Origin: Thuidium tamariscinum
Lineage: Eukaryota > Streptophyta > Bryopsida > Hypnales > Thuidiaceae
DNA length: 64,000 bases
Assembly: GCA_947034885.2 (NCBI GenBank)
Contig: OX344754.2
Coordinates: 4,781,001 to 4,845,000 of the forward strand
Reading direction: 5' to 3'
Made by a program: the position numbers and the translations under genes. The notes beneath the pieces were generated by a model. It was not told the DNA's origin. It made no database searches and saw nothing but the letters and a program-made list of their open reading frames with translations. Every line of letters starts with the position of its first letter. Positions within the stretch are counted from its first letter, which is position 1. This document shows positions 1,696 through 56,658 of this stretch, one piece after another.

Positions 1696-3522
1696 ATGTC
1701 TATGAATTCAAACATTGCAAGTTCTAGTGGAGTGGGTAGTAGCAAAGGACCACCAACTTGTGCATGGGTATCCTTGACTTTGGAAGAGCAACTTGCAAAT
1801 TTCCGGACAAATTTTGAACGCATAGTTGGTGAATGCTATTTCATTCAAGTTTCTCCTGATGCTGCATTTCTTGAATCCATTGCCAAAGTTGTGAAGGCTT
1901 TGAGGATTGATCCGTGGGTGGATATTAAAGGTCTTCTTCGTCGAGGACTAGATAAATATCGGGCATTAGATGGAGCAACTCCTCTCCATTGGGCTATATT
2001 GATGGATGACAGAACAATGGTACAATACATCTTGACTTCAAAAAAGGTAGACATCAATGCTTCAAAGCTTGATGGAGTAAAATTTGCTTTGAACTATGCT
2101 ATAGTTGGTGGGAACTGCGACATAGTAGGAGACCTTCTTAAGCACAAAGCTGATGTTTGCATCTCTACTTTTTTCCAAAAAAATGCCCTCTTCTACATGG
2201 TCCATCACAAGGATTCCATGTTTGGCATTCTCCAAAAGGTTCTAGTCAATAATGTCAATATGTGTGACATAGGAAAGAATACAACCTTGCATTTTGCAAC
2301 AATGGAAGGAGCTATAGATGTTGTGAAATATCTTCTAGATCAAAAGGCGGATGTAAATGCACGCAATCATTTTGAAGAGACTCCACTTCATTGTGCAACA
2401 AAGAAGGGATCTCTAGATGTTGTGACATGTCTTTTGCAACAAAATGCTGATGTTAATGCATCAAGTTACTTGGGACGCAGTCCATTGCACAATGCAATAG
2501 AAAATGGAGAAATGAACATCATATCAATTCTTATGGAACACAATGCAAATGTTGAGGCTTTGGATAACTATGGATGGAGCCCACTTCTTTGTTCTATAAA
2601 GTATCAAAAGGTTGATGCATTTAATGCACTAATAGCAAATGGTGTTGACATTCACGTCAAGGACGAAAAGGACAATAATGCTCTTCATTTTGCTATTCAA
2701 GCTCATGATGAAGACCACAATATGATGGACATTGTGAAAGTTCTTCGAGAGCATGATGTCGATGCAAATGCCAAAAACATTAGAGGACATTCTCCATTTT
2801 TTGGGGCTGTACTTCAAGGTCATACAAATGTGGTGAAGGAATTTTTAAAAAATAAAGAAAAGATAAAACTCATGGATGAATGCAATGGTCATACTGCAAT
2901 CCAAATTGCATTTGACCATGGCCATGAGCATATCAAAAGAGTGCTTTTGGAGTGCGATGACATCAGCCGATATGTGAGTGATCTTTATAGAGATCGCCAA
3001 GTCTATGTGGATGCTGCCAATGCCATTCTTGTTGGTGCAGCCCTCATTGCTGGCGTTACATTTGCTTCTTGGCTTCAACCACCGTTGGGCTACACTACTC
3101 CTTATGTAGATCTTTCTCCTCCAAGCTCCAACATAAACTATGTGGATGTTCAAGACAATGTATCTCTACGAGTGTTTTGGATATTCAACACCTTATCATT
3201 TTACTTTGCCATTGGAACGGTGGTGTTTGGTGCTCGAAGCGTATTGCCAAGGCGGCGAATGTTTATCAAGGCCATTGTGGTGAAACTTCACCGAAACTTA
3301 TTGGTTACATCCATCCTTTTGGCATGTTCGGTTTTTTGTGTGATAATAGCCTTTGGAATTGCAGGGTGTATAGTCTTGACTCCGACATTAAAGTTTCAGT
3401 GGTATATGATAGTTCCTACAATTTTTGGAGGCTTGTTGTGTTTAGTTAGTTTAATGTTATTGTTCAAAAGTATGGTGGAGGATAATTTAGAAGGGAAAAG
3501 AGAGAAATTTGAAATATTCTAG
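1696..3522 (+). CDS. Ankyrin-repeat/PGG-domain membrane protein, copy A (intact)
   Basis: The product is about 608 residues from the first ATG after the splice acceptor (ATGTCTATG). An alternative start two codons on is possible. Residues 1-90 are a Ser/Gly-rich start plus a helical region. Residues 92-425 hold about ten ankyrin repeats, with clear TPLHWA, TTLHFA, TPLHCA and SPLHNA cores. Residues 442-460, 492-511, 534-561 and 569-590 are four hydrophobic helices. The first helix runs into QPPLGY (461-466), the counterpart of the PPGGY signature of the plant PGG domain. Known members such as ACD6-type proteins are membrane proteins acting in defence or stress signalling; that role is not shown here. 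The gene is the only uninterrupted copy of three in the window. Its leader exon and promoter lie to the left of the window. I am sure of the family and less sure of the start. Confidence 0.9.
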   Translation: MSMNSNIASSSGVGSSKGPPTCAWVSLTLEEQLANFRTNFERIVGECYFIQVSPDAAFLESIAKVVKALRIDPWVDIKGLLRRGLDKYRALDGATPLHWAILMDDRTMVQYILTSKKVDINASKLDGVKFALNYAIVGGNCDIVGDLLKHKADVCISTFFQKNALFYMVHHKDSMFGILQKVLVNNVNMCDIGKNTTLHFATMEGAIDVVKYLLDQKADVNARNHFEETPLHCATKKGSLDVVTCLLQQNADVNASSYLGRSPLHNAIENGEMNIISILMEHNANVEALDNYGWSPLLCSIKYQKVDAFNALIANGVDIHVKDEKDNNALHFAIQAHDEDHNMMDIVKVLREHDVDANAKNIRGHSPFFGAVLQGHTNVVKEFLKNKEKIKLMDECNGHTAIQIAFDHGHEHIKRVLLECDDISRYVSDLYRDRQVYVDAANAILVGAALIAGVTFASWLQPPLGYTTPYVDLSPPSSNINYVDVQDNVSLRVFWIFNTLSFYFAIGTVVFGARSVLPRRRMFIKAIVVKLHRNLLVTSILLACSVFCVIIAFGIAGCIVLTPTLKFQWYMIVPTIFGGLLCLVSLMLLFKSMVEDNLEGKREKFEIF

Positions 3523-4460
3523 TTTGACATTTGACAAAGATTTCTTGAATCTTTGGATGTGAAAATGTAGGATTTCTTCCCTTCTTACCATAGTATTATA
3601 ATTATGTATTTTCATGTTGGCATGGCATTGAACTCAAAAGTTGTAAGACATATAGGATCTTCTTTAGTATCAACTAACGAATGTAATTCTTTTTCTAGAG
3701 AGTAGATTGAGCATTATTTTCTTTCCTAGAAACAAATATATTTGTTCATTTTTTGAGATAAGTTTGTTATATGCTTGAAAATTTTCAAATCATTTGAAAT
3801 TTTACAACATAGAGGAAAATGATACGGGGTAGAAAGAAATAGAGAATGATTCAAAATAGTAAATTGTGAAGATTTTAATTATGAATTAACAAAGTGGCAA
3901 TCTCAATGGTTGTAATGTTGGAATAAGCAATCCACATTCAATGATTTTATTTATTTTTTGAACACTAAAAATTGAATTAAATAAAAGAATTCAAGTATTT
4001 TTAGAGAACAAAATCTTTGATCGCATGCAAACTAGAACCCTTCACAACTTCTATCTCATTTATGAAATTGACATGAATCAAAGCTTTCCGCATTTATATA
4101 AATCTATAAAGTCAATTTCAAGTTTTTGTTTATGAAAAGGCTGATTTTTTCTTATCTACCTAGACTATCCGATTAAAGAAAAAAACTACTTATTAAACAA
4201 TAACTTTTTAACCACGTAGTCAAAAGTTATGAAAAGTATTGGCCATTAACCGCTAAAGGTGCAAATACCATTTTTTGGCAACATAGAAACTTTGGATAGC
4301 TTACTATGAATAAAGTTTTTTTTGTTTTTATTTTTTGAAATTTTTGCGTAACATGTGCCAAAGGAGTAGCTTTGACGCCTCACAATTTTTCTAACATTTG
4401 ACTACATGGTTAAAAAGTTATTGCATCATATATCATTTTCGTCATTTGGTGAGCAAATTG
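3523..4460. other. 3' flank of copy A; no gene
   Basis: This stretch is conserved in B (from 31712) and C (from 56659). AATAAA at 3980-3985 is conserved but about 460 bp from the stop, so its use as a poly(A) signal is uncertain. From about 4020 the sequence resembles decayed piggyBac-like elements: TTAACCGCTAAAGGTGC at 4247 and the 'TTTTTGGCAACATA' that follows match 14078 onward. Confidence 0.5.
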
Positions 4461-5045
4461 CACTACAAAAAAAACAAGGGAATAAATGACTTGTCCATAG
4501 TCATTGTAGACAACAGTGACTACAAAATGACTACAAAATGACAGTTTTGTAACTCTTATTGTCCACAATGACTCTATGGACAAGTCATTTACTCCCTTGT
4601 TTTTTTGTAGTGTTGGATAGATCAGAGAGCTCATAAAACTTCTTCTAAAATCAATTTCTTAAGAAATTAAATTTGAAACTCATTATCTGTATTTTTATAA
4701 AGACTGAAAGCTTTTAATCATTTTATTTTGATTTATGGAATGAAAAATGTAAGGAGTTTTCATTTGAGAGTAGGTATGGTTATCATAGACTTTATACCTA
4801 TCTACAAACTAAAAATCCTCATAACTTCGATCTCATTAATTGAAATGGAATGATTCCGAATTGTCAATGTAAATAAATCTAAAGTATCAATTTCAAAGTT
4901 TAATTTCTTAGAAAAATGATTTTTTAAGAAGTTGCTTGAGTTGCTTGAGTTGCCTTCCAAATGACAAAAATGGCACTTCAAGCAATAACTTCTTAACCAT
5001 GAAGTCAAAAGTTATGAAAATTGTTGGGCCTTGTAAGCGATTAAT
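4020..5045. mobile_element. Decayed piggyBac-like (CCCCTAAAGG) sequence, shared by all three units
   Basis: Segments such as TTAACCGCTAAAGG, TTTTTGGCAACATAG and AAAAGTTATTGCAT resemble the TTAA-flanked element at 14082-15006, and related segments occur in both orientations. Its presence in A, B and C shows it predates the duplications. The limits are approximate, and it is interrupted in A by the CACTA hairpin. Confidence 0.4.
4461..4612. mobile_element. CACTA-type foldback MITE (152 bp)
   Basis: It begins CACTACAAAAAAAACAAGGG and ends with the complement, ...TTTTTTTGTAGTG. TTG flanks both sides (4458-4460 and 4613-4615), and units B (about 32645) and C (about 57585) carry the empty site with one TTG. 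The CACTA ends and 3-bp duplication are the hallmarks of the CACTA superfamily. The two halves are nearly complementary, so a transcript would form a long hairpin. No protein is encoded. Confidence 0.9.
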
Positions 5046-5545
5046 TACCCACCCTCGGTATCCAATTTAACACAACCAAGTTCTTATGATTATCTAGATG
5101 TGATTCTACATGTGGGTGATTGGGTGCCTGGGCATAGGTTCATTGTGCTTTCTAAGCAATGGATCTTCTTTAGTACCTAAGTGACTCAAAATTGTAGAAT
5201 TGGCTCAAAATATATTTTTAAAATGCTTTAAACAAACTTATTGGTTAAATATCAATGCCACTCTGGTTTTTCTTGAATGTTGGTTTAGACCAAAACTATT
5301 GACCTCATCTTGTAAAACACTATTTTCCCTTTCGAGGAATATAAAAATCATTCAAACTCGACCTTCTTACCAAAAGTTATAGAAGGATGAAGTTTGATCA
5401 CTAATTGGTTCATAAAACTTCATTCATGATTTCTAACAGTTTGAGGGTTTGAAATGAGTTGGAAATTTAAAGATAAATTTTGGCTAAGAACTTCTATCGG
5501 ATTCTTAAGTTTTGTTTACTTTGGATGATTTTCCTATGTATTCAA
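4616..5545. other. Spacer without a gene
   Basis: AT-rich sequence collinear with B and C. Only short, unconserved open frames are seen, apart from the decayed transposon sequence noted to its left. Confidence 0.6.
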
Positions 5546-5549
5546 TTAA

Positions 5550-6469
5550 CCCCAAAGGACCATTGTCCCCTTGGGGGACAATTTGGAGTTCGGGCAAGTT
5601 CATTAGACCTCAATTTTTAATGAATATTTTTGAAACTTTCTCATAAGATAGGAAAATTGATTAGCTTTATGGGAATGTAATTTTTATTTCAATTGGTGAC
5701 CAGGAGCAAAAGTTATACCACAAAAAGCACGGATTTTAGTTCAATGGACAACGGGCAGAATTTCTTTTTGCAAAAAGTCAAAATTTAATTTAATTTTTTT
5801 TTTCTGAAATAATATATTTTTGCCTACATGTGAAGCTTTGATTCACTCTATTTGGACTTATAATGAGAAAGTTGTGGACAATCTTGTTTTTCGGGCAATG
5901 TAAACAATTTTTTGAAAAAATAACTTATAGGATTCATTTTTGAATGCAATTTTCACAATTTTTCAAAAAAAATTGTTGGACAAGGTTATGTTTACTTACT
6001 AGAACAATCTCACCATTGGAATTATTGTATTTCAATCCCAGCTTAGAGTTATTAGCCATTTAGTTTTTCTTTCAATCTTGGACCTACATGTACTTAACAA
6101 TTTTTTAAAGAATGAAAATCAAGTGTTTTATGTGTGAAATTTTTTTTCATAGACTTTCAACTCAATTTATTAACACAAAAAATTATAAATTCAAAGTCTA
6201 TAGTGCAATTCTTTTTTACAAATGCCAGTCAAAGTCATATGAAATTGCAAATCACAGTTAAAAAAAAATTGTATTTCCAACTTTGAATGTTCATATCTTC
6301 CAATTTGTATGGTCAAAATTCATGAAATTTTTACCACTTGATCTCAATCAAGTTAAGTACAAGATCCTACAATTAGATTCTTAAAAAAAATTGTTTTCTT
6401 GGGTGAATGCAACAAAAATGGCAGTTTTGAGAGGTTTTTGACAAAATAAAGGCCTTGGTCCTTCAGGGG
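5550..6469. mobile_element. piggyBac-like non-autonomous element (920 bp)
   Basis: The ends are CCCCAAAGGACCA and the imperfect complement TGGTCCTTCAGGGG, flanked by TTAA at 5546-5549 and 6470-6473. Units B (about 33880) and C (about 58505) lack it; their empty site has the length expected for one 4-bp target copy but differs at three bases. TTAA duplication with CC(C/T) ends is typical of piggyBac. No transposase frame is visible. Confidence 0.75.
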
Positions 6470-6473
6470 TTAA

Positions 6474-8609
6474 TCCTAGACTATTACTTCATCCCTCTCT
6501 AACTTCTTCACCTTTCAGGGGTTTATTTGTGGAGACACATGTCTAGTTTTTAGTGAGTCAACTCTATGAACTCATGATGCTAATCTATCTTAGAGGGGTT
6601 TAATTGAACTTGCTTACTTCTTATGCCTCGGTTTAACTTTTGTCCATTTTCTATTTTTAAAGATTTTAGGTTTTATTCTTCTAGATACTAACTCTAGCTT
6701 TCTAAATAAATATTGAATTTCCTAATCAAAGCTTCATACTAGAAGTTATAGGGGGATGAAGTTTGACCGCTAATAGGTTTATCAAATTTTATTCATGATT
6801 TCTTACTAATTGACAATTCAAATTTAAGTTTTTTCTTCAACTTCAAACTCTAGATTTTGACTACTCTAAAATTTTACTCAACTTGTTCCAAAGTTTTAAG
6901 TTTTATCTATTTGTCATTCATTTTACCTTCTAAACTTCATCTAACTCTAACTTTCTCAATTTAACTTTAAATTCTATATTTAATATGTTTTAAGAAAGTT
7001 ATGAACAAGATCTATAGTAATTGGAATCTAAAACTTGGGTAAAATTTGATCTGACTACTTTGACTTGTACTTTTAGTATGGTTCCTATATTTTGAAATGT
7101 CAACTTTGAAACTCAATAACTTTTGAAGTTCTTAGAAGCCTACTTCTTTTTATGGTCTTCTTGAGTGTTGTTGTAGACATTCTTCCATATTTTCTTATTT
7201 GCCATCTTAAGACACTTGTACAATTTTTGCTCACTGCTTAAAGATGGTAGTTTCTTATAGTTTTTGGAACTTAGATATCTATTTTCTATTTTTTTTCTCT
7301 TTCTTTTCTTTTTCCACTTATCTATTTTTTTTTATTATAGTTCAAGAGTTGACTTGGAAATTATACAATAATGCTTCAAACTTCAAAATAATAATTGATT
7401 ACTTCTGCCTATTCAAGTCAATTATTATTCTATCATTAATTTTAATGGTCTAAATGTTTTTTTCAAGGTTTTCACCTAATCCTTCTTCAACTTCTAAAAT
7501 CTTTTACTATTTTGTATAACCATCCCAACTTGGCTTCCTACTCCATTCTATTGTTCTACTTGAAGTTTTTGAACTCCCCTACCTTTTGTGATTGTGGCAA
7601 AAAAACTGGTGAATTTAGAAGTTGCTAATTGATATGGCTTTTAGATGTTGATTGCTCTTCTTTTCTCCTTATTAGTCTTTTTGCTTCCCACGCTTTCTAA
7701 TCTTCTTTTTAATCTTCTACCTCTTCTTCTTCTACTAATTGTATTCTATATTTTCTACAAAACATCAACTATCAAATTTATGGGGAAAAAAAATTGATTC
7801 TCATGCAAATTTTTCCTTTGGAAAGTCAAAAAGGGCCTTAGCTTACAGCAAAGCCTAGCAACCCCTATTTGCCAGCGCAGGCTATAGGGAATGGCCCTAC
7901 CACTTTCTTACCTGGTAGGGAGCTTTTGCCAAGGGTCTACCTAGGCAAGGATGGAACCTCTAGCTGAGCTCTACCCTAGGCCAGAGAAATCAACCCCTAT
8001 TCCTACCGACTAGGCCGAAGAGCTCAACCTGTGCACCTACCAACTAGGTGAAGGAGATCAATCCAGGTGGGGATTTTATCATTGCCCAATAGGTCTGGCT
8101 GCCCTCTTTGTTGGGTCGTGGCTAACAACTGCCTTGGTCGAGGGTTCAACTTCCTGGCTAGAGTCAACTACCTGACTGCGAGTCGAGGTATCAAATAGGG
8201 ACTTGATCCCCTTGGCCCCTCCGAGTTTTTGTGGCCTATTTGAAAATTTTGGAGTTTTGGAATACTAATTGGAAATTTTAAATAGAAATTTTAAACTAAC
8301 AAATCCGGTGGAAATGAAGGAATTTGTTTTAGGAACACCTAATCCTTGGATGCTATACTTGATATGGACTTTTAATATTTTGGGCATTACTTAGCAATGA
8401 ATCTTTGCTCTTTTAAATTGTGTGGGGATTTTTCTACAACCTAGAAGTTCAAAGCTCCGCCGTCTCTTACAAAATCACTCAAATCCTATGGATTTTGCTA
8501 TAGATAAAGTCAAAGCTCCACCATGATCCCAAATGGGACAAGTAAAATATGGGCACTTAAATGAGTTAGTACAACACTCAAAACTTCAACACAAATTAGT
8601 ATAAAGGTT
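6474..8609. other. Spacer; probably an old LTR-type element remnant
   Basis: No gene. A less AT-rich block at about 7850-8220, with runs such as CCCTACCACTTTC and CTACCCTAGGCC, matches 40310-40680 of unit B. Parts of this spacer and of 10300-11750 resemble the interior of the LTR-type element at 35422-40308, suggesting that a related older copy forms the background here. Confidence 0.4.
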
Positions 8610-8617
8610 AGTTCAAC

Positions 8618-10290
8618 CACGGGGGGGACAATTCCCGCGTTTTAGCAACCCACTTGTGGCGGAATATAGGGTGGATTTAATTCATTTTGGATAATATTTA
8701 TAAGTATTTATAAAAGAATTACATATAAAATAGGAGACATGAAAAGTGGCAATTTCATTATAAGTAATGTAGGTAGCCAAAAAATATGGTTCATTCATTT
8801 TTAGGTACATGTAATTTAGGGGCAAAAGAATTAAATCCAAGGAATTGCATTTAGTAGGGTTTGTTTAATATATTATGTCGAAATTACAACACAATATTAT
8901 GTCAGATTTATAGTATAGTACTCATACATCAAAGTTACAAGATGAAACTCCAAATCAATGGATGAAGGTGCGATTTCACAAACTTAGAGTTTTAGAGTAG
9001 GTGTTGGGTGGAATATTGAATGTTTTTTTCAAATGCGTAAGTGTGTATCAAAAATGCAGCAAGGTGTTGATGTTGTAGTTTTTCTATTTGCTAGCAGACA
9101 TTTTTTCTTGTTCGCATTTTGACATTGAGGCACATTTTTAGTACTTTGCACATTTAGTACTGGGTGAATGCCCTAGGTGAATGCATGGTTGAGTTGGCTC
9201 AAAATTGCATCACAATGTCAAAAACTACACTCAATAAATTTTCAGATGCATGTAGGATATGCTTTAAAAATTAGAAAAGAAAAAAAAAATTGTTTTAGGA
9301 TCTTAAACTTCATGATAAATGTGACTTTGTTGTTGAATGATTTTTATAGCATTGCATGAAATGTAGTGAACTTTTGAAAATATAGGAGTGTGACGAATTT
9401 GCTATTAGCATATTTTTCAAGGACTTTTCAAAGATCTCTTAAGTAATCAAATTCATACAAGGGACTTTAATTCTAAGGGGGGACTTACTAAACTTTCAAA
9501 AAATCATAATCTTAATGTGTAAACATATATTGATTGTTTGCAAAGGACTTTTAATGACTTTCAAAACCTTGAAATTTACAAAGTCCTTTTTGCATTTGTA
9601 ATCATTTTTCTTTTAATTTTCTTTTGTCTAAGTTTAACGTTTTTATAAGTTGTAGGTACACCCGTTGAATTTTGGACTTTTTCATTAACCAAATTATTTT
9701 TGAATTCTTTCAACCGACATTCAACTGTAAAGAACTTCAAATATAAACTTGGCGGAGAAGATTGGGTTGTTGATTGGACTCATTAATGGCTAACTTATGG
9801 TAGTTCTTGAATTTGACTATATTTAATTTATGTTTTTTAATTTTCAAGGGACTTTGTAGACTTGGACTTTTGCCAAAATTGAGCCACTCAACCATGCATT
9901 TGCCCTACTTTCATTGACTTTAGCTTTGTGTTTTTGAACACATTCTTCATATGGCTTCTAATTGTTGAGTATGGCTTTCAATTCTAATGTTTTGTGTTTA
10001 ATTCATTCATGCTAATTGGTGTTTAGAAATTGAATATTTTTTTCTATAAACTTTCTTCTTGTCACTTTTACTTTCTCACTAATTTTTTTACTTACAAAAA
10101 AAATAGGCTAAAAAAAATTGCATTGACCTACATATTATAAGTAATGATATGGATGATTATATAGGAAATTTTTTTGCATTAGGTAATGATAGGGGCCCTC
10201 TTAATGTTGCTGAGGAGGTAAATAGACCCCCCAAAAGTATCCCTCCACCGCACATGGGTCCTCCAAATGTGGTGAGAATATCCCCCCGTG
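8618..10290. mobile_element. hAT-like element (1.67 kb), CACGGGG ends
   Basis: The left end is CACGGGGGGGACAATTCCCG and the right end ...ATATCCCCCCGTG. Subterminal inverted motifs ACCCACTTGTGGCGG and CCACCGCACATGGGT are present. Flanks AGTTCAAC (8610-8617) and ACTTCAAC (10291-10298) form an 8-bp target duplication with one mismatch. Unit B has the empty site (about 41101). The interior has no transposase frame. Confidence 0.85.
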
Positions 10291-10298
10291 ACTTCAAC

Positions 10299-11873
10299 CA
10301 ATAAAATAATAACAAGTTAGTGCAACATGTTAGTCCACAAATTCTTAAAATAAACACTAAAGGCATTTCGTAAGCAGTATCACCAATCATAAGGAAAGAA
10401 ATCCTTTAGGATTAGTACAAGATGTTAGAATACTCAACAAAAACATCACCAAATGAGCCAAAAATTTCAACAAAAGATACCAAAGGTTAGAAAAACTTGA
10501 AGGGACTCCAAATTCCTTCAAAAATTCAACAAAGACACAAAATAGGACCTTGAAATGCTCCAAAATACACACATTTTAGTAGCTTGGTTCAAACTTGACC
10601 AAAAATCTAAATAAATGAACAAACAAGAATATGTTGCCAAAAGATGGCTACAAGGGGTGATTTGAGAGAGAAATGCATGCCCATATATATTCTTCTAAAG
10701 GTGCCCACATCCTCTGATTTTCATGTGGTAATCTTATAACCTAAGATTTTTATACTAATCTAACCATTTTTAATTTTTTACGCTGATCTATTTTTTAACC
10801 TTTGGAGGTTAACTCTAAATCACAAAAAAATGCGCCATTGGCTTTAGAAGGCCATTTTTGTTTTTAGAAAAAGCCTATCTATTTTCTTGACACTAAAAAC
10901 TCAACGAATCTTAATACTGACTTAATAACCAAAAAAAGTAAAAATCTAACTTTTGAAGGTTGACTTTTCTAAGAAAAGTAACTAGCCTAAGATCTTTAGT
11001 AAGTGTAAGGGAGTAAGAAAAGACTTAATTTGAACGTCATTCTGATTTTGTAGGCATCCAAAATGGCGATCAAACTCCACTGTAATCTTTAATTTTATTA
11101 GTTTGAAGAGGACCTTGTCAGTTTGGATACTTTTGGCTATCAAAATGTCCTGAAACTTGTTCGAGATTTTCATTAACATAAAAGAGTCTATTCTAGTTTT
11201 TAATAGGATTTTACCACAATTTGAATAATTTATGAAAATCTCCGGTTGGACGTTGAAGTGATTGACTACCTAGAGAAGTATCTTTCGAAGATTAGAAAAT
11301 TTTTAAATTTTTTGAGGGGATTCCAATCGAATCCCATAAAAGATTTGAAAGACTAAATCTAAACTCTACATGATTGTCAAAGGAGAGTAAAATCTTACAC
11401 CATCCTTCAATTATTAGATTTCGAAGAATCTTTCACACGGAGAGGAATCTTAACAAAGCAACTTTGTTGTTAACTTCATAATGCGATTTCAATCCAATAT
11501 CACTGTCTTTCGGCCGTAGATTCCTTTTATCAATTTGTCACTATATTTTTCAACTTGTAGGCTAACAATTGGAATTTCTACAAAGAGTGGAATTCAATTG
11601 AGAACTCAAAATCTATTTGTGAAATTGGGCTTTAGAGTTCTCACCAAGTTCTTTCAAACCTATTTTAGCCAACTTCATCACATATACGGCAGATGGGGCT
11701 ATTTTAGATAAATCTACCAAAGATGGGTTTAATTTAAATTTTAACAATTTCTAACCTATTTATAAGTTCTTTTTTAATCTAAATGGATAAAAACACTCAA
11801 AATATGACCAAATACTATATTGGCATGTAACATATTTATTTTGATTTTACACTCTTTTTTGGGCTTTTTATAC
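10299..11873. other. Spacer without a gene
   Basis: Collinear with 41110-42690 of unit B. It appears to be an old LTR-type remnant (see 6474-8609). The open frames here are not conserved between units. Confidence 0.5.
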
Positions 11874-11882
11874 TATTTTACA

Positions 11883-12250
11883 CCCTGGGTACGCAACTCT
11901 TGTATTATATATAGGGGTCATTCACATTAAAATGGCTTAGAGGATGGCTTTTGTTAAAAGGATATCAAATTAAAGAGACCAAAAAGTTAGGTGAAGGCCA
12001 AATTAAAAAAATGTTATATGTAGAAAATGTTGCATTACATACATTCTAGAAAAAAAAACTCACAATATATATGAAGAATTAAAACACCTATGCATAGTTT
12101 TTTTAAATCCATACAAAAAATTCTCTCCAATTAAAATTAAATTTTTATTAAAAAGCCCCCAAAGTTGGGTAGCTTGGCCTATGATACATGTATTAGAAAA
12201 CTCATATGATTTAGGTTTTTAATACTATTATTGTCCTCAAAAAATATTCA

Positions 12251-12285
<35 letters not shown>

Positions 12286-12420: not shown

Positions 12421-12429
12421 TTTTATACA

Positions 12430-13612: not shown

Positions 13613-13620
13613 GTTGCATT

Positions 13621-44742: not shown

Positions 44743-44795
44743 GGAATTCTATTGAATGGAATTCTATTGAATGGAATTCTATTGAATGGAATTCT
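44743..44795. repeat. 15-bp tandem repeat (3.5 units)
   Basis: GGAATTCTATTGAAT repeats from 44743. Unit A has a single unit at about 16137, so this is a local expansion in B. Confidence 0.9.
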
Positions 44796-46002: not shown

Positions 46003-46153
46003 AAATTTTGAATTTAATCACTCAATCAAAAAAATAATAATATTTTCACCAAGTAAGTACATGGTATCAGCTTGTATCAAAATTTTGAATTTAAGCACTC
46101 AATCAAAAAAATAATAGTATTCTCCCCAAGTAAGTACATGGTATTAGCTTGTA
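46003..46153. repeat. Local tandem duplication (about 76 bp x2)
   Basis: CAAAATTTTGAATTTAA through ATGGTAT(C/T)AGCTTGTA occurs twice in succession. Unit A has one copy (about 17383-17455). The second copy is the one that received the following transposon. Confidence 0.8.
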
Positions 46154-46876
46154 GGGTGAATTCACGAAACACTTGTACTATTTTTTGTCACACGGCATGT
46201 GCTGATCTGTTTTTTGGCCATAACTTTTGTATTTTGACTTGAAATGACTCGAAATTCATAGGGAAGGTACTCATGACTATTATACACCTTACATAATTTT
46301 TTCATAATTTTCAAAAATATTTGAAGATTAAAACAGTACTAGTGATTGAATGTCACATTTGGCAGTTTAGGGGTTTTTAGTCACTAAGGAGTACCTTTTT
46401 TTCATGATTTTGAGCTCAAATTTTGATGAATTGGTCTTCTATTAGACTTCTAGCTTTCTACAGAAGGGATTTTTGAAAAAGTTATTTTTGTGTGGTGTAC
46501 AAGTCCACAAAGTGGACCTCCTTCTATGTTTTTTTGGAAACATGTAAGAAATGATTTTGGTGATTTTTTTGATGAATAACCATCTCCATAAAGTTTTTGC
46601 AAATGGCCAATTTTTATTTTATTTTTAAAAAAATATCCCTATTTTTTACTAATTAAAGCATCAAAGTATGTATTTTCTTGAGGTTTGGCAAATCTCAAGT
46701 TCTCCTACTTAGAGATTTTTTTAACAAATTTCCTTTGGTGGTTTTCTTCATCTTAAAGGTTTTTACATTAATCATATTTTTTTATAAAATTTAAAATTAT
46801 TTATCTAATTTTAAAGTACTCCCAAAGAAAATCAGCAAAACGCAACAAATAGTACAAGTGTTTCGTGAATTCACCC
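46154..46876. mobile_element. GGGTGATTGCA-family element (723 bp), unit B
   Basis: Ends are GGGTGAATTCACGAAACACT and its exact complement at the right. TGTA is duplicated (46150-46153 and 46877-46880); unit A has the empty site GCTTGTATCAAAATTTTG at about 17447. The interior is the reverse orientation of 18109-18841. No open frame. Confidence 0.9.
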
Positions 46877-46880
46877 TGTA

Positions 46881-48708
46881 TCAAAATTTTGTGAACATCA
46901 ATCTAAAATTGACTTAGTTTGTAGGAACCTTTTTAAGATTTCTTGTCTATGTTGAGCTTGACACTAGCTTGGTCCTTTTATCAAATTGAATGGTGGAACT
47001 TCTGAAAATAATTGGAAAAGCTAATTTGGAGCATAGTTGTGAGTTTACTTTGGACTTTTCAAAATCTTTTGTGGCATACCACATACTCAAGGAGTGGTAG
47101 TTTATTTTGAAAAAGAAGGCCAGCATGATTCAAAACTAATTAAACCTAAAATAAACCACTTTTCAAAATTGACCCCAATTTTAGAGGAAAACTATATAAG
47201 GAGACTACCTAAATTAGTATGCATTTTAAAGGCAAGTCTAAAAGTAGAGTTAGGGATCATTTTGACTAGTGTGCAATTCTACTTATAGTACTATGGAGGT
47301 CACAACCTTATAAGTGGTCAATTTTGGATACACTTTGTGTTGTTTTAACTTCTTCTCTATAGGATGTTTTGATACTACAAGTGTCATTTCTTCATGTGCA
47401 TCAAATGATCAAATGTATATTGACATGACACATTTTGCACCTTATACCTTGGCACCTTGCATCTTTGAAAATATGTCACTAATTCTCAATGTGTCCAAAA
47501 ATTATGGAACTACTTGCATTTTGATTCATAGTCCTTTTCTACTATGCAAAAATTGTTGTTCACTTCTTAGAGCTTTTTATATGTGTTATGGTCTTATTTG
47601 TGTATGTATCAATGTAAGCTATTTTTTGGGTGGATAGTGAGGAGAGGGATATTAGTTGATTTATTTACAAATTCAAGTTTATTAAGTTATCACCCCCCCC
47701 CCCCCCGCCTCTTATATAGTTTTCAAATGTAACTGAAGACCATAGTCATTACAAGAAATATTGTGTAGTTTTTGTAGTGTTTTCTACAACAATTTTTTCT
47801 AGGAGTATTTTAAAACTAGAATTTAAAAAAAAAAAAAGTGAAAAATATCTTTTATATATACACCTTTAAGAAAAAGGTACCCAAGAAAGGAAAAGCATAG
47901 AAAAATCTCTAAATAGGAGAATGAGAAAAGTACAAAATCTCATGAAAATTGGTACTTTCACATTTTAATTCGTAAAAAATAGGAATATCAAATTTTTTTA
48001 AAGTCAAAATCGTCCATTTGGAAAGAGTTGATGTTGTTGAGATTTTACCAAAGGAATGATTTTAGAACCATCTTCAATGTTCAAAAATTGTGTGCAACAG
48101 GAGGTTTATTTGTACTCATGTGGAGGACGTAAAATAACATATTTTCAAATTTCATTTGAAAGATAAAGGTTTCCACCTATGCAAATAGACCATGAAAGTT
48201 TTGTCTACAAATCATTGAATTTGGGCACTCAAAACATAGTGAAAATTGAAAGCTACACCCTCATTGTGACAACTCATTTAAATATAAAATATTTATTTTA
48301 ATTTTTGAAAAATAAGGGATCTAATTACGATAAAGTTAAACATGTTCAGTAAAATATTTATGTTCATTGGACCTACACTTCAAAAGTTATAGTCGACATG
48401 AGGAAAGTGATCTACATTGTGATGAGAAATAAGATTTGTGTTTTTTGCAATATATGACCCACCAAACGATGTAGGTTAAGTGCTTTTGTATTTTTAAATC
48501 CGCATCATAATTTTGTATACATATCCATATTTGGATATATGAATATATGCATCAATATTTGTATGTTATATTTGGATATGCATATTGTATTTCAATCAAC
48601 CGTAGGGGAAAGGGGTTTCTTGTGTTTTTCCAAAACTAATCAATGGTTGTCTTTTTTCCATGCCAGGGAAGAGGGGGGAGGATTGCCGCTTTTCAAGGGA
48701 TAGTGTTG
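46881..48708. other. Spacer without a gene
   Basis: Collinear with 17456-19963 of A. It includes a 14-C run at 47693-47706 and a worn GGGTGATTGCA-family fragment from about 47750 that is longer than in A. The open frame at 47314-47637 is not maintained in A, where the matching region (about 18885-19210) has indels. Confidence 0.6.
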
Positions 48709-48710
48709 TA

Positions 48711-48930
48711 AAGTAGGGAACCCGAATACCAACCATTGACCTAATACCACTCAAGTGTAGGACCCTTATTGATTTTAGAATAAGAATCTATGATAGTAGT
48801 AAGTGCCTTACATTCATAAAATTGTGAAGTTATGGCATTTAATACTATCATAGATTCTCATTCTAAAATCAACATGGGTCCTACATTTGAGGGGTATTAG
48901 GTCCATGGTTGGTATTGGGGTTGCGTACCT
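48711..48930. mobile_element. TA-flanked foldback element (220 bp), unit B copy
   Basis: AAGTAGGGAACCCGAATACC pairs with ...GGTATTGGGGTTGCGTACCT, and TA is on both sides. It is the counterpart of 19966-20181. The arms fold over most of their length around a short loop. Confidence 0.75.
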
Positions 48931-48932
48931 TA

Positions 48933-51840
48933 GTTGCCATAGTGGAAACCATCACTGAGTCCCTCCCCCCAAGTAGCAATTTGAGAGGAGACATTCCAGG
49001 CTATAATGTGGGTCCATTGTCGGCAAGGACAGGGGCTGAAATCCTCAGTGACAAATCAAGCGCTTTGAATCATCTACAGCTCAGACAATTCTTTTAGAGC
49101 CCGGCCAATTCTATTTTCGTGTCCCAAATTCCAATCTGGGTCTGGGTAATGCACCTTCCCAAATTTTCGATATCACTGCAGGCCGGCCGAATTAATGTTG
49201 GAAAAGCACGAACAAGTGCGATTCTGGGCTTCATTGCTTTAGAACTATTTGAGAGCAAGCCATTGATTTGAATCCTAACTTAGATTATGTCGAGCTTGAG
49301 GAGAGGTGGCGGCAGAAGAATTTCTTCGTACTCTGAGACCAGAAATACGAACTTGCCTGAGTGTAAAAGGATACTCGGTGTGCATGCGCTTCCGTCGTCT
49401 CCTCGCCCTCCTTGCCATCAGTATTCAGCATTAATTGCAATCTGAGCTTACACTTCTGGTCGGGCCCTGCGACGCACGGGGTTCTCGTCGACCTCTGCGA
49501 TCCTCCCTTCCTTCTCACACGAGCATGCAGGTCACCACCAAGCCCAACCCCGGCCCACTCAGGTTTCTTCGGCTTCTGCTTCATAACATTCAGGGGCAAC
49601 TACCGTAATTAACTTCGTCGTGCATGGGTCGTGCAAATTCAACGTTCAGCAAATCGAAGGGAACTAAGATGAGAAGATCGGACTGGAGATCTACTGAGGA
49701 GGTCTTCTGAGGTTGCTTCAGAGTTTAAGAATTCGGCTTTTCGCATTCTTTCAAGTGCTACAATTCAAGTCGACACTGAATGCTGAGCACTTGTGCTTTC
49801 AGGCCTACTGGATGAAGTGAACAATCCATTATTTTTCCAGGTCAAACCTCATACTCTGCAGAACAGTTGGAGTTCTCAAATTCCTTACTGCAGCACATGA
49901 GCCTCACATGCCTCACCAACAGCGTAATTGGAATGGGACGAACGAAATAATTGTGGAAGTTCATGGAAAGTTGAACAAGCTTGGAGGTCTTGGCCAATAA
50001 TTGCAAAATCTTTACAGAATTTGCAAAAATTCTGGAGTTCAGTCATGCACACAAAAACGGATGGTAATCGTTGAGACATTGCGATGTCCAGAGAAAGAGA
50101 TTTCCGCGATGGCTTACTGGCGGGAATCACCATTAGGGACATTCAATTCCTGTGTCCTGACTAAACATTTGATGAGATGTCTCGAGGTAATTTGCATTAC
50201 CGTTGAAATTGTCCAGGCTTCAATTGGACTCAATGTAAAAACTGTACATCAAATGTCATTCAAATGGATTGAGTTAGGATCGTCATAGGGAGATTGAATT
50301 GGACATTCACGCTTTCAATAGTGTACTCCAGTAACAAGTGGCATGCTTTTGAAAGCATTTTACTCTCTCTCTGTGTGCTTACTGCTCAGGAACAGTCTTG
50401 GAGAAACGGAGCGGACAAATCGCAATTGAAGAATGTTGAGAACGAGAATACTCCGTTTTTTTGCTAAGAGCAGAATTTTCTTGAGCAGAATCTATAGAAA
50501 CGCAGATCTGTAAGACAAATCGGAAGGGCCATTGGAAACTTGTGAGATCCAGAGCAAACGCAAACGCATAGATACAGCCTCGAGCATCGCTAAAAATTTG
50601 CTCAGAATCAATTGAACGCGTGGAAGGAGATGAGGTATGTTGCAAACAATGGTGGATTCAACTTCAGGGGCCAGCCTGTATCTCCTTCATCCAATGTTTG
50701 GTTTCAACAGAATTTGTTGGATTATGTTCCTCTTGGAGTCTGACTAGTTATTGCGGTGAAATTTTCATGCAATTCCAAGTTGCTGTGAATGTTTGGGACT
50801 AGTTTGAAGTTCAAGATGTAGATGTTTTTGGATTAAAGTCATCTGTGGCGGCCTGTTTCTTCTTCATATAGTGTTTGTTTCAAATAAATGTTTTTTGGAA
50901 AAGTTGCACATACCAGTCTAGTTTGTGGTTAAAATTTCACATCAATCCAAGAAGATATGAGTGACTAAGATGCATTTTAGTAGTCTTAAAAGGTTCAACC
51001 TTAAATATGGTTTTTTGCGATTTTCTTTTCTTTTCTTTTTCGACATTTCAATGCCATTTCATAGACACAATGAGTCAACTGAATGATATTTTCTTTCACC
51101 ACCATGTTTCTACTTTGGATTGAAGGCACTTTACTATAATTTCAATTTTTTCCATTTGAATAGGTTTAGAAATCAAAATTCACCTCCAAATGTGTTAGGA
51201 AAATTTCAGCATCTTTTTTCAATACTAAGTCATTATAATCTTGCAATTTATGAAACCAAATGACTCCAAATTTGATTCAAGTCATCTTCAACATGCACAC
51301 TATAAGATTGTATGGTTCAGATTTTTCAAACCTTAATGACATTTTGGACTTTAATAACACTCTGAAAGCAATGATGTTAGTTTAATCCTATACAGACACT
51401 AGAGATCAGAATGCTACAATGGATGACAAAGAATTCTTGCATGTAGGATGAAAGCGCAATTGTTCATCCTTGGAATTTTGTAGAAAAAGAGGAAGCCATG
51501 AATAGTAATTTGGTTTACAATAAATACTTTGGAATTTTTTTAAGTAGAAGACTATCACAAAGGATGATTTCCAAAGACACCAGCCCGTCCTTACCAGGTG
51601 AAACCCCCAAAAGCGGCCTTGGGTTACTAGCCTGCAAACCATGAGAGTCACCCCAGTTCAAACTGAACCAGTGACGACACCAAAAGAAATCCCTGCAACT
51701 TAACTTAGAGATCAAAGATGCGGTACAAGAATTCATTAATGCGTACCGAGGTTGAGCTGGAGTTGCAGTGTGTTAAAATCTGTTAAGCCTCAACCGACGA
51801 TCTTATCGCAGAGAAAATCATCCGGTTGGATACAATTTGA
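48933..51840. other. Less AT-rich conserved block upstream of copy C; function unknown
   Basis: Counterpart of 20184-22539 plus the single-copy version of the segment that is multiplied in unit A. The frame at 50001-50288 and the one on the opposite strand at 49285-49599 look gene-like in length but are broken or different in unit A, so I do not call a gene. Confidence 0.5.
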
Positions 51841-51850
51841 AGCATCTACT

Positions 51851-51975
51851 TTTTTTTTTTTTTTTTGGCACAAATGAAACGGAATTTCATTGCATAAAAT
51901 AGAGTACAACGCCCAGCCACAAGTGGCCTGGGGAGAAAGACCACTAGCCACTTAAAACAAGCCAACGCACAAACA
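51851..51975 (-). mobile_element. 5'-truncated LINE 3' end with poly(A)
   Basis: A run of about 16 T (poly(A) of the opposite strand) is followed by GGCACAAATGAAACGGAATT, typical of the 3' end of plant L1-type LINEs read on the minus strand. AGCATCTACTTTT is repeated on both sides (51841-51853 and 51976-51988), a target duplication of LINE type. Unit A has the uninterrupted site AGCATCCACTTTC at about 27506. Confidence 0.8.
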
Positions 51976-51988
51976 AGCATCTACTTTT

Positions 51989-52877
51989 AGACAGAGAGTC
52001 TTCGTCCACCATGTGCTTATTTAAGGCGTCCGCGTCCTAAACAGAACCTCCGCGTTGTCAGGGCCTCCGCGTTCTGAACAGGGCTCCCGTGTTCAGAACA
52101 GTGCAACCACGTCCTTACGGAGGCAAGAGTCTTCGTCGTGGAGAGCCCAGTTGAAAAGGTAGTTTGAGAACTTGAGTCTCCCCCATTTTCGAAGCTTGCT
52201 GACTCTCTCTCTCTCAATCTTTGCTGGTGGAGGAGGTTTTCATTTTCGTTTGTAGGCGCATAGCGGAGCTGGTTACCTTCGTTTTCTTCCCTTCCCTTGC
52301 TGTGGAGTTGTGAGTCCTTAGTTGCTCCGTGTTGTTGTTGTCCGGCTGATCGATCCATCAAGGAGTCCGTCGATGTGTACGTGGAGAAGCTGCTGGAGCA
52401 GTTTACAATCGAGGCATTTGTTTCCATCGGAGACGGACTCGATCGATCAAGGTCCTGTCACTTTCAGGAGACGGAGTTTGGTTGAAGGAATTTTTCGTTT
52501 GAAGGTGCATAGCTGAGCTGAGCTGGTTACCCTCCTTTTCATTCTTCCTTCAGTTGCACCGTGTTGTTGTTGGCCGGCTCATCGATCCATAGTGGAGTCC
52601 ATCGATCTGTACATCGATCTGTACGTGGAGAAGCTGCTGGAGCTGTTTACGATCGAGGACGAGGCATTGTTTCCACGGAGACGGACTCGATCAAGGTCCT
52701 GTCCCATACATGGAGGAGACGGGGTTTTGGACTAGGAAGTGTGCAACGTAACTTGAGCAAGTAGAGCTCTGATGTTTGCTGCTGCTTCGATATTCATTGT
52801 ACTGTGAGGCTGTGTTTAGACCGTGGCTTTGTGGAGCTCTTCTTCGATCTGACCGTGCGGAAGTACATCCTCGGAAG
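51989..52877 (+). promoter_or_regulatory. Putative promoter and 5' leader exon of gene copy C
   Basis: It ends in the donor CGGAAG|GTGAGA (exon end 52877), identical to that of copy B. Two related modules, at about 52335-52455 and 52561-52700, share GGCTGATCGATCC-type, TGTACGTGGAGAAGCTGCTG and GACGGACTCGATC motifs. In the first, one frame reads VEKLLEQFTIEAFVSI. No ATG opens that frame nearby. It could be a decayed coding exon, an upstream peptide or simple duplication of leader sequence. The transcription start is not fixed. Confidence 0.55.
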
Positions 52878-54779
52878 GTGAGAATAGTCGGTGGCTTTGA
52901 TCGGCAGTTGTTTTGGTGGTTTTCTACTGGCTGGTGAGGTTGTTTTCCTACTACGAAGTAATAGTAGTGAATGATGTTGGGTGCTTTCACGCTTTGAGTA
53001 CTCCAAAAATGAAGTTAGAAAGTGACAAGTTTGCAATCTTGCAACTTGGACACCTGTTTGTGAATAATGGGCTTTGTAGAGTCTATACTTGGGTGTTAAT
53101 TTCTCCATCTTTTTTTCAAAATTTGATAGGTATAGAATGAGGAAACCTACCAAATGGGGTCCTCTTATGGTGAGCCACACTTGCTAAAACACATGGATGC
53201 AATTAAAAAACCAAACTCGCTTTTTATAATTTTGTGCTATAAACTCATTCACTTACAATTGAAAGCGAATACACATTTTTTTCATCTCAAGATTCTTAAA
53301 GTTTTTTTTTAATCATTTTTTATATTATTAAAACAAGATGGCGAATTTCGTCAAAATGGCAAAATTCCATTGGTTTGACACTTTTGATAGTTCAAATTGT
53401 ATAGTCTGAAATTTAAAATTGTCATAGAATTTTGAAATCTATATGCGTTGTAGATATCTCAAATCTATACTTCTTCAAGATATTTTAGACTGTATAGTCT
53501 GAAATCTAAATCTGTTATAAATTTTGAAATTCTATATGTATCTTAGATTTTTGAAAATCTATACCTATCCTAGATGTCAATTTTAGTTCAAATTGCGCAA
53601 TTTGAAAAATGGCATTTGGAATACCGCCATCTTAATGAATTTTGCCATCAAGCAAAAACTTCAAATATTATTTTGAAGGTTTTGAATTTGTTTACAATTA
53701 GATTTTTCAATTATTAAATCTAAAGGTAATCACAATAATGTAAAGTCCGAGTCAAAGAAAATTCACCTTTTGGGTGATTACAAGAAACATTTGCCTTGTT
53801 TTTTGTCCCCAGATTGGTTTTTGACAATTGTATTTTTGTTCATAACTTTTGCATTGTATGTTAATTTCACATGAAACTTGAAATGAAGTGCATGTGAATG
53901 TTTTTGACAATATTTAACATTTTGGAATTTTTTAGAATTATTTTATTATTTCTAAATAGCCTTCAATTGGATGTCTATCTTGGCCATTAGGGGGGACTAT
54001 CATCTTATAGATGGGATGAAAGTGTATTACCTTTGTGCAAGTATAGGAAATCCAATTTCTTTTTCCAAAGATGCAAATGGTTGAAAAGGAGTATGTTGAA
54101 GTTAGGAAAAAAAGTGCTATTTTATTTTGTTATTTTGAATTCTTTTACTATTTATAAAAATTAAACATCAAAGTATCCATTTTTATGATATTTTTCATTG
54201 TGCATAACTTTTAGAGATAAAATTTCTAAAGTCTAGATTGTTAAAGAAATTATGTTTTGAGTGTTCTACAAATTATTCATATTTTATTTTACTTTAGAAA
54301 ATCATTTATTTCAAAAGTCCCAGGACTATTTAAAATAGGCTATTTTGAGGTGAAAGAGGTCTACTACTATTTCTTGGAACAACCCTTGTACACATTTTTT
54401 CAAATTATTTATAGTTTAATCCAATTTTAATTTCTTTATGAATGTCATTTTGAAACAACTTTATTTTGAAGCAATTTGGAAAGATAGTTTCTACATTTCT
54501 TAGTTTTTGCAATGATATTTTTTCAATTTTTTTGAAAAAGATATAGCTTATATATAAATTAGAACTTCCTATTAATCAATTTTGATGTTCTCAATTTTGT
54601 AAATATTCAATACAAATCAAATTTGAGACTAATCATTATAGTATTAGTTCCCTATGTATACAATTTGTATTAGAAATGAAATGTTTGCTTGAAAGTCATT
54701 ATAATTCCTATAGTATTAAAGTGCCCAATTTGAGCTTTCATGATCTATAAATTCCAATCAAAGTTATTTTTTATTATAG
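52878..54779 (+). other. Predicted leader intron of copy C (about 1.9 kb)
   Basis: GT at 52878-52879 and AG at 54778-54779, in contexts conserved with copies A and B. It contains the 311-bp element (copy 3) and the worn transposon end, like the intron of copy A. Confidence 0.6.
53338..53648. mobile_element. 311-bp TIR element, copy 3
   Basis: ATGGCGAATTTCGTCAAAAT at the left, ...TGAATTTTGCCAT at the right; CAAG at 53334-53337 and 53649-53652. Position, target duplication and length are the same as at 196-506, so it is the same insertion event inherited by A and C and absent from B. Confidence 0.9.
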
Positions 54780-54832
54780 GACTAAAGTTTCATTGGAATT
54801 TGTTGTGCGTAGAAGATTTATTAAAGAAGACA

Positions 54833-56658
54833 ATGTCTATGAATTCAAACAATGCAAGTTCTAGTGGAGTGGGTAGTAGCAAAGGACCACCAACTTGTGC
54901 ATGGGTATCCTTGACTTTGGAAGAGCAACTTGCAAATTTCCGGACAAATTTTGAACGCATACTTCGTGAATGCTATTCCATTCTAGTTTTTCCTGGTGCT
55001 GAATCTCTTGAATCCATTGCCAAAGTTGTGAAGGCTTTGAGGATTGATCCGTGGGTGGATATTAAAGGTCTTCTTCGTCGAGGACTAGATAAATATTGGA
55101 CATTAGATGGAGCAACTCCTCTCCATTGGGCTGTATTGATGGATGATAGAACAATGGTACAATACATCTTGACTTCAAAAAAGGTAGACATCGATGCTTG
55201 GAAGGGTCATGGAGTTCATACAGCCTTGAACTATGCTATAGTTGGTGGGAACTGTGACATAGTAGAAGACCTTCTGGAGCACAAAGCTGATGTTCGCATC
55301 ACTAGTACTTCTCGAAAAAGTGCCCTCTTCTACATGGTGCATCACAAGGATTCCATGTTTGGCATCCTCCAAAAGGTTCTAGCCAATAATGTCAATATGT
55401 GTGACAAAGGAAAGAATACAACCTTGCATCATGCAGCAATGGAAGGAGCTATAGATATTGTGAGATATCTTCTCAATCAAGAGGCAGATGTAAATGTGCG
55501 CAATATTATGGAAGAGACTCCACTTCATTTAGCAGCAGAGAAGGGATCTCTAGATGTTGTGACATGTCTTTTGCAACAAAACGCTGATGTTAATGCATTA
55601 AATCTCTTTAGAGTCAATCCATTGCACAATGCAATAGGACATGGAGAAATGAACGTCATATCAATTCTTATGGGACACAATGCAGATGTTCAAGCTTTGG
55701 ATCGTCAGGGGTGGAGTCCACTTTTCTATTCTATAAGGTATCAACATGTTGATGCATTTAATGCACTAATGGCAAATAATGTTGATGTTCACGTCAAGGA
55801 CAGAAGCGGCAATAATGCTCTTCATCTTACTATTCAAGCTAATGATGAAGACGACAACATGATCCACATTGTGAAAGTTCTTCAAGAGCATGATGTCAAT
55901 GCAAATGCCAAGAATATAAGAGAATATTCTCCATTTTTTGCGGCTGTACTTCAAAATCATACAAATGTGGTGAAAGAATTGTTACAAAATAAAGAGAAGA
56001 TAAAACTTATGGATTAATGCAATGGTCATACTGCAATCCAAATTGCATTTGACCATGGCCATGAGCATATCAAAAGAGCACTTTTGGAGTGCGATGACAT
56101 CAGTCGATATGTGAGTGATCTTTATAGAGACCGCCAAGTCTATGTGGATGCTGCCAACGCCATTCTTGTTGGTGCAGCCCTCATTGCTAGCGTTACATTT
56201 GCTTCTTGGCTTCAACCACCGCTGGGCTACACTACTCCTTATGTAGATCTTTCTCCTTCAAGTTCCAACATTAACTATGCGGATGTCAACACAATGTATC
56301 ACTACGGGTGTTTTGGATATTCAACACCCTCTCATTTTATTTTGCCATTGGCACGGTGGTGTTTGGTGCTCGAAGCGTATTGCCAAGGCAGCGAATGTTT
56401 ATTAAGGCCATTGTGGTGAAACTTCACCGAAACTTATTGGTTACATCCATCCTTTTGGCATGTTCGGTTTTTTGTGTGATAATAGCCTTTGGAATTGCAG
56501 GGTCTATAGTCTTGACTCCGACATTAAAGTTTCAATGGTATATGATAGTTCCTACCATTTTTGGAGGGTTGTTATGTTTAGTTAGTTTAGTGTTATTGTT
56601 CAAAAGTATGGTGGAGGATAATTTAGAAGGGAAAAGAGAGATATTTCAAATATTCTAG
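54833..56658 (+). pseudogene. Ankyrin-repeat/PGG gene copy C: nonsense codon at the ankyrin/PGG join plus a later frameshift
   Basis: The frame from ATG 54833 runs 394 codons to TAA at 56015-56017, where copy A has GAA (Glu395). It contains the N-terminal region and nine of the ten ankyrin repeats, ending just before the last repeat and the membrane part. The sequence stays homologous after that, but a T is missing next to 56286 (GGATGTCAAC against GGATGTTCAAC), shifting the frame between helix 1 and helix 2; helices 2-4 continue open to 56658. Compared with copy A, I count about 80 differing residues in the 394 of the ankyrin part and about 10 in the remaining 214. Repeat number is complete, unlike copy B. 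It is a pseudogene as a PGG protein; an ankyrin-only product remains possible. Confidence 0.87.

What the first reader, a model, noticed from the sequence alone, without database searches (positions are those of the whole stretch)
1696..56658. Three tandem ankyrin/PGG copies diversify in the repeats but not in the membrane domain
By hand count, copy C differs from copy A at about 80 of 394 residues in the N-terminal/ankyrin part but about 10 of 214 in the rest; B versus A is about 46 of 360 against 13 of 216. Changes often hit whole adjacent codons at repeat tips: DNYGW, DIWGW, DRQGW; NASKLDGVKF, NVWKVSGVQL, DAWKGHGVHT; KDEKDNN, KDKNNNN, KDRSGNN. These tips are the usual ligand-contact surface of ankyrin repeats. 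The pattern recalls recognition receptors under diversifying selection, or alternatively homogenisation of the 3' part by gene conversion.
Basis: partly seen in the sequence, partly recalled or inferred. Interest (0 to 1): 0.78.

Follow-up and report, generated by a model that had tools for sequence, protein, structure and literature searches.

The report
Selected ankyrin tips, constant membrane domain
A plant genome carries tandem copies of a membrane protein whose ankyrin repeats change fastest at the exposed tips that usually grip partners, while the membrane part stays the same, as expected of receptors pushed by selection to recognise new things.

Summary
A/C differ at 80 of 394 codons, then 10 of 212; A/B at 45 of 359, then 13 of 214. 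Silent divergence is not lower in the membrane part, so conversion of the 3' part is rejected for these copies. Copies B and C are broken, but the own genome has three more close copies, two intact. On A-D, dN/dS is 3.1 at repeat tips (p 5.6e-9), 0.67 elsewhere in the ankyrin part, 0.23 in PGG; the intact pair A/D alone gives 2.7 (p 4e-4). Two of three other arrays tested repeat the tip signal (6.9, 1.9); one does not (0.29). Against: A/D/E give 1.4 (p 0.07); dropping multi-hit codons removes the signal; the most permissive mutation model gives p 0.058 for tips. Best reading: ACD6/Lr14a-like ankyrin-transmembrane immune receptors with a diversifying ligand surface on a constant channel-like domain. 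Ligand, channel activity, expression and species are unknown.

The parts
1696..3522 (+). Copy A: intact single-frame gene, 608 aa, ten ankyrin repeats then PGG membrane domain
   Evidence: ORF; Pfam Ank_2 2.1e-46, PGG 1.8e-11
1816..1872 (+). N-terminal hypervariable patch of copy A (codons 41-59), before the repeats
   Evidence: omega 3.3 on A-D, p 1.4e-5, chosen after seeing the data
1963..2952 (+). Ankyrin repeats R1-R10 of copy A (codons 90-419); tips are repeat positions 33 and 1-5
   Evidence: register; predicted helices fall at about positions 7-14 and 17-25 of R5-R9
3010..3372 (+). PGG domain of copy A (codons 439-559); four hydrophobic 19-mers lie within codons 436-590
   Evidence: Pfam PF13962 44.3 bits, cut-off 24.1; hydropathy
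29985..31055 (+). Copy B, ankyrin-only open frame of 356 aa; one repeat (99 nt) is absent at about 30603; a 1-nt deletion at about 31038 ends the frame
31040..31711 (+). Copy B, PGG-coding remainder in another frame
   Evidence: PGG 4.4e-13 for the ORF 30971-31711
54833..56017 (+). Copy C, ankyrin-only open frame of 394 aa ending at TAA
56018..56658 (+). Copy C, PGG-coding remainder, with a 1-nt deletion at about 56285
1..28617 (+). Tandem unit carrying copy A
   Evidence: self-comparison
28618..53141 (+). Tandem unit carrying copy B
53142..64000 (+). Tandem unit carrying copy C, cut by the window end

Best explanation
This is a tandem array of plant ankyrin-transmembrane (PGG) genes of the ACD6/Lr14a kind. 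Units of 25-28 kb were duplicated in tandem (shown), presumably by unequal crossing-over (inferred). After duplication the exposed beta-hairpin tips of the repeats, above all repeat position 2, were replaced by positive selection, while the repeat framework and the PGG domain were held by purifying selection (shown statistically, with the caveats given). The likely working: the ankyrin stack is the ligand-binding face, each copy with its own ligand spectrum, and the conserved PGG domain is the common signalling part, probably an ion-channel-like module as proposed for ACD6 and Lr14a (inferred from family). The broken copies (B and C here, F outside the window) are casualties of gene birth and death (inferred).
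For: dS equal or higher in PGG. A/B/C: tip omega 2.74 with multi-nucleotide changes allowed, p 2.5e-5; in 100 parametric bootstraps under omega=1 the largest 2dlnL was 9.65, observed 17.7; tips of R4-R9 only, 2.77, p 4e-4. A-D: tips 3.10, p 5.6e-9; a contact-position set recalled from designed ankyrins (2,3,5,13,14,26,33) 2.24, p 3.8e-5. Intact A and D only: 2.68, p 4.1e-4. By position on A-D: position 2 omega 9.2; framework positions 7, 8 and 20 zero. At position 2 all eight repeats R2-R9 vary among A-D and the third codon base is unchanged in 5 of the 8, unlike block replacement. PGG omega on the C branch 0.19, below 1 at p 4e-5, so C was constrained for most of its history. Replication: array C8 23.8 Mb tips 6.86, p 2.5e-10; array C3 43.6 Mb 1.93, p 0.0019. 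Contacts in ankyrin complexes are enriched in beta-hairpins (PMC4687027, passages). Lr14a gives race-specific resistance and ACD6 shows ion-channel activity (PMC7878491, PMC9194748, PMC11387256; passages).
Against: Array C4 24.2 Mb has tip omega 0.29 and no clear ankyrin/PGG contrast. Adding distant E and F lowers tip omega to 1.80 (p 1e-5); intact A/D/E give 1.40, p 0.07. Dropping codons with two or more differences leaves 1.20 (A/B/C) and 0.83 (A-D), neither different from 1, whereas simulation under a uniform tip omega of 3.1 gives 1.75-3.39 after the same removal (15 replicates). With a tip-specific rate p is 0.029 for tips and 0.0081 for the recalled set; with own rate and own multi-nucleotide rate 0.058 for tips, 0.017 for the recalled set, 0.0034 for position 2 (post hoc). 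PGG of branch B is 0.52, not distinguishable from 1. No expression, ligand, allele or infection data; two of the three window copies are broken.
Confidence: 0.6

Rival explanations
1. The 3' part is homogenised by gene conversion, so the membrane domain only looks conserved.
For: Tandem copies can exchange; PGG pieces are 94-96% identical to A in protein. In another array (C3 43.6 Mb) PGG dS is about half of the upstream dS in several pairs, e.g. 0.33 and 0.16, so it may contribute there.
Against: In A/B/C the PGG dS is as high as or higher than the ankyrin dS in all three pairs; no unusual run of agreeing silent sites (P 0.38 to 0.85); flanking non-coding K of 0.07-0.14 is of the same size.
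Confidence: 0.03
2. Relaxed constraint plus a local mutational process at the tips (multi-nucleotide changes or small templated patches), without positive selection.
For: 34 multi-hit codons among A/B/C, 16 of them among 57 tip codons; signal goes when they are dropped; most permissive tip test p 0.058.
Against: Tip omega =1 with a tip-specific multi-nucleotide rate is rejected, p 3.9e-5; recalled contact set p 0.017 and position 2 p 0.0034 in the most permissive test; third bases mostly unchanged at position 2; array C4 lacks the pattern.
Confidence: 0.2
3. The variation is decay of pseudogenes B and C.
For: B and C carry lesions.
Against: Decay gives omega near 1, not 3; framework and PGG stay constrained; the intact A/D pair alone shows tips 2.68, p 4e-4.
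Confidence: 0.04
4. Diversification follows an internal partner (another subunit, a small modulator protein, or a self/non-self partner), not a pathogen ligand.
For: ACD6 is modulated by small proteins MHA1/MHA1L (PMC11387256, passages).
Against: Nothing here tests it; separate arrays with the same pattern fit an external, fast-moving partner better (inference).
Confidence: 0.13

Closest known systems
ACD6 of Arabidopsis (ankyrin-transmembrane)
   Same: N-terminal ankyrin repeats and a C-terminal membrane domain; immune role and ion-channel activity (PMC9194748, PMC11387256, passages)
   Different: ACD6 is described by alleles and modulators; no report of tip-focused selection among tandem copies appeared in my searches (listings only)
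Lr14a of wheat
   Same: Ankyrin plus transmembrane; race-specific resistance; 10-50 kb tandem repeats flank the segment and probably mediated its deletion by unequal crossing-over (PMC7878491, passages)
   Different: 12 repeats; [quoted passage not shown]
Designed ankyrin repeat proteins (DARPins)
   Same: Variation at surface positions on a constant framework (principle in PMC8683736, passages; the position set 2,3,5,13,14,26,33 is recalled)
   Different: Natural and membrane-anchored; here the peak is positions 2-5, with 10 and 13 weaker

Membership tests
Plant ankyrin-transmembrane (ANK-TM/PGG, ACD6-like) | PGG domain | tested here: met
   Copy A 44.3 bits against cut-off 24.1
Plant ankyrin-transmembrane (ANK-TM/PGG, ACD6-like) | N-terminal ankyrin repeats | tested here: met
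   Ank_2 156.9 bits; helix pairs in the model
Plant ankyrin-transmembrane (ANK-TM/PGG, ACD6-like) | Several membrane helices at the C-terminus | tested here: met
   Four hydrophobic 19-mers over 1.6 in copy A; long helices predicted there at low confidence. Copies B and C have this part out of frame
Plant ankyrin-transmembrane (ANK-TM/PGG, ACD6-like) | Ion-channel activity | not testable with these tools
   needs electrophysiology
Diversifying immune receptor | omega above 1 at a defined ligand surface with a constant signalling domain | tested here: met
   weaker under the most permissive models and lost when multi-hit codons are dropped
Diversifying immune receptor | Binds a pathogen ligand or gives resistance | not testable with these tools
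   needs experiment

The most novel reading that the evidence does not exclude
The arrays are a germline repertoire of membrane channel receptors with a DARPin-like binding surface: each repeat contributes one or a few freely exchangeable tip residues (position 2 above all) on a fixed frame, and whole repeats are gained or lost, so that ankyrin-PGG proteins recognise ligands directly. Ankyrin-only copies such as B and C could act as soluble decoys or modulators of the intact ones.
Probability: 0.25. Interest if true: 0.85.

Novelty: new variant of a known kind. Interest (0 to 1): 0.63.

Why it matters
What ankyrin-transmembrane immune proteins such as Lr14a and ACD6 sense is, to my knowledge, largely open. 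A sharply placed, apparently positively selected surface (a few tip residues per repeat) on a conserved membrane domain, seen again in other arrays of the same genome, says where to look for the ligand contact and makes it testable by tip swaps between two intact paralogues.

Tried and rejected
Gene conversion of the 3' part: rejected for A/B/C by dS and silent-site runs; not excluded as a contributor in array C3 43.6 Mb. A stretch where A and B agree at 14 polymorphic sites in a row (cds 575-785, 0 of 5000 shuffles) is not seen among silent and non-coding sites (longest AB run 4, P 0.76), so it is either acceleration in C or a short A-B exchange; unresolved. Silent change is low in codons 1-120 of A/B/C (0 or 1 per 60-codon window), so any homogenisation is at the 5' end; not followed. 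Other ankyrin fragments in the window: the only further tblastn hit has E 8.8. Viral contigs: no relative. Rfam at gathering scores and ARAGORN: nothing. Pfam on ten other window ORFs: two families below cut-off on one ORF, else nothing. The predicted model was used only for the repeat register; its membrane part is low confidence. Groups with one pair only (C6 23.7, C7 6.9, C3 37.9, C2 10.9 Mb; seven ORF pairs) are too small for a tip test: tip pN exceeds the rest in 2 of 7 (C3 37.9 PGG exon 0.103 and 0.058; C2 10.9 N-terminal ORF 0.390 and 0.145).
Full report
WHAT IS THERE. The window holds three homologous genes on the + strand, starting at 1696 (A), 29985 (B) and 54833 (C), in tandem units of about 28.6, 24.5 and at least 10.9 kb that align with each other over many stretches. 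Copy A is one open frame of 608 aa: an N-terminal stretch, ten ankyrin repeats (codons 90-419) and a PGG domain (Pfam 44.3 bits, cut-off 24.1) with four hydrophobic segments. The predicted model, made from A with the pieces of B and C as alignment, puts helices at about repeat positions 7-14 and 17-25 in R5-R9, with block pLDDT 74-96 from R4 to R8; the membrane part is low confidence. That supports the register used below; 'tips' are repeat positions 33 and 1-5.

STATE OF THE COPIES. B lacks one repeat (99 nt in frame) and has a 1-nt deletion; its ankyrin ORF ends at 31055. C has TAA at codon 395 and a 1-nt deletion in the PGG part. So two of the three window copies, as assembled, have no membrane domain in frame with their repeats. 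C's lesions look recent: its PGG omega is 0.19, below 1 at p 4e-5; B's is 0.52, not distinguishable from 1 (p 0.11).

They hold: A/C 80 of 394 and 10 of 212 codons; A/B 45 of 359 and 13 of 214 (codons with gaps or stops left out). dS in the two parts: AB 0.107 and 0.148, AC 0.115 and 0.128, BC 0.081 and 0.128. Non-coding K in the flanks is 0.07-0.08 upstream and 0.09-0.14 downstream. In these copies the PGG part is not homogenised; it is constrained.

WHERE CHANGES FALL. A codon model of my own with one omega per part, shared branch lengths and multi-nucleotide changes allowed gives for A/B/C: tips 2.74, other ankyrin 0.65, N-terminus 0.42, PGG 0.26; tips =1 rejected at p 2.5e-5, beyond all of 100 parametric bootstraps. 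Without multi-nucleotide changes it is 3.08, p 1.7e-7. The tip phase is the best of 33 phases. Within A/B/C the C branch carries most of it (5.4; A 1.5 and B 1.4 are not different from 1).

MORE COPIES. The own genome (363 Mb, 19 contigs; window at C6:4781001-4845000) has 59 PGG matches (C's broken PGG is not among them). DNA similarity shows six close members on C6: E (C6:4738608-4740580), A, B, C, D (5044871-5046700) and F (5082661-5084474). D and E are intact, E about two repeats longer; F is broken. On A-D: tips 3.10 (p 5.6e-9), other ankyrin 0.67, PGG 0.23; on A-F: 1.80 (p 1e-5), 0.48, 0.18. The two intact close copies A and D alone: tips 2.68 (p 4e-4), PGG 0.14; with E added 1.40 (p 0.07). 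Per position on A-D: position 2 omega 9.2, positions 3-5 3.4, 2.7 and 2.4, position 10 2.0, positions 7, 8 and 20 zero. At position 2 every repeat from R2 to R9 differs among the copies while the third base stays the same in 5 of the 8. An N-terminal patch (codons 41-59) is also hypervariable, omega 3.3, p 1.4e-5, chosen after seeing it.

RESULTS AGAINST. Removing all codons with two or more differences leaves tip omega 1.20 (A/B/C) and 0.83 (A-D), not different from 1. Simulation shows this is not only an artefact of the removal: with a uniform tip omega of 3.1 one gets 1.75-3.39 (15 replicates), with omega 1 0.46-1.29 (15 replicates). The signal therefore sits in a subset of tip codons that changed more than once; positions 2 and 3 have the highest omega. 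If tips have their own rate p is 0.029; own multi-nucleotide rate 3.9e-5; both together 0.058 for tips, 0.017 for the recalled contact set, 0.0034 for position 2. I take this as good but not final evidence for selection over a mutational cause.

OTHER ARRAYS. Of the rest, 25 ORFs in seven groups went into the comparison. Upstream/ankyrin omega exceeds PGG omega in 20 of 21 pairs of C3 43.6 Mb, 6 of 6 of C8 23.8 Mb, the single pairs of C6 23.7, C7 6.9 and C2 10.9 Mb, and 6 of 10 pairs of C4 24.2 Mb; in C3 37.9 Mb the one long pair is level (0.43 and 0.42). dS is not equal everywhere: in several C3 43.6 pairs PGG dS is about half of the upstream dS, so exchange may help there. Tip tests with four members each (4 of 8 homologous places of C3 43.6, 4 of 4 of C8, 4 of 5 of C4): C8 6.86 on 18 tip columns (p 2.5e-10; own rate p 0.029), C3 1.93 on 34 columns (p 0.0019; own rate p 0.037), C4 0.29 on 23 columns (below 1, p 4.8e-6). 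So two of three arrays repeat the tip signal and one is under purifying selection. In the C8 array the model gives PGG 0.87 and unassigned upstream codons 1.39, so there the contrast is tips against the rest of the repeats more than ankyrin against PGG. Repeat register in these arrays comes from a profile built from the C6 copies and is less sure.

WHAT IT IS AND HOW IT WORKS. Membership in the plant ankyrin-transmembrane (PGG) family is met on its sequence features. Family members Lr14a and ACD6 act in immunity and are channel-like (PMC7878491, PMC9194748, PMC11387256; passages). Lr14a also lies between 10-50 kb tandem repeats, and its loss in one cultivar was put down to unequal crossing-over between them, as the units here would allow. 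Beta-hairpins of ankyrin repeats are enriched in partner contacts (PMC4687027, passages). The simplest mechanism is ligand sensing by the tips and a shared output by the PGG domain. Ligand, channel activity and expression are untested.

NOVELTY. Tandem duplication of this family is known (PMC9353636, passages), and so are its immune roles. My searches for selection in it (listings only) showed no report of tip-focused positive selection; subscription papers are mostly not in that library. Hence: new variant of a known kind.

Noticed in passing
window about 30603 (copy B): Loss of exactly one 33-residue repeat; the break lies where neighbouring repeats share a short similar stretch, as unequal recombination inside the gene would leave. 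Repeat number also varies in E (about 12 against 10).
   Followed up: partly
window 1816-1872: N-terminal patch (codons 41-59) as variable as the tips, amid codons 1-120 with almost no silent change among A, B and C.
   Followed up: partly
L011 (C6:5081500-5085500): Sixth array member F is broken early (stop near codon 42, frameshift near codon 305); three of the six close array members are broken.
   Followed up: partly
G000 C3:43.58-43.88 Mb, C8:23.75-23.87 Mb, C4:24.2 Mb, C3:1.36-1.51 Mb: Other arrays of PGG genes; C8 and C3 43.6 share the tip signal, C4 does not, C3 1.4 Mb was not read.
   Followed up: partly
window 37413-37741 and 63120-63348: 91-nt tandem repeat present in two of the tandem units.
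   Followed up: no
window 41817-42092 (-) and 10982-11269 (-): Weak La-domain similarity (E 3.3e-4, below cut-off) for the first ORF; a similar-looking ORF lies in the other unit.
   Followed up: no
window 15155-15851, 18097-18843, 24985-25711, 46152-46887: A dispersed repeat of about 700 nt in both orientations, perhaps a mobile element.
   Followed up: no
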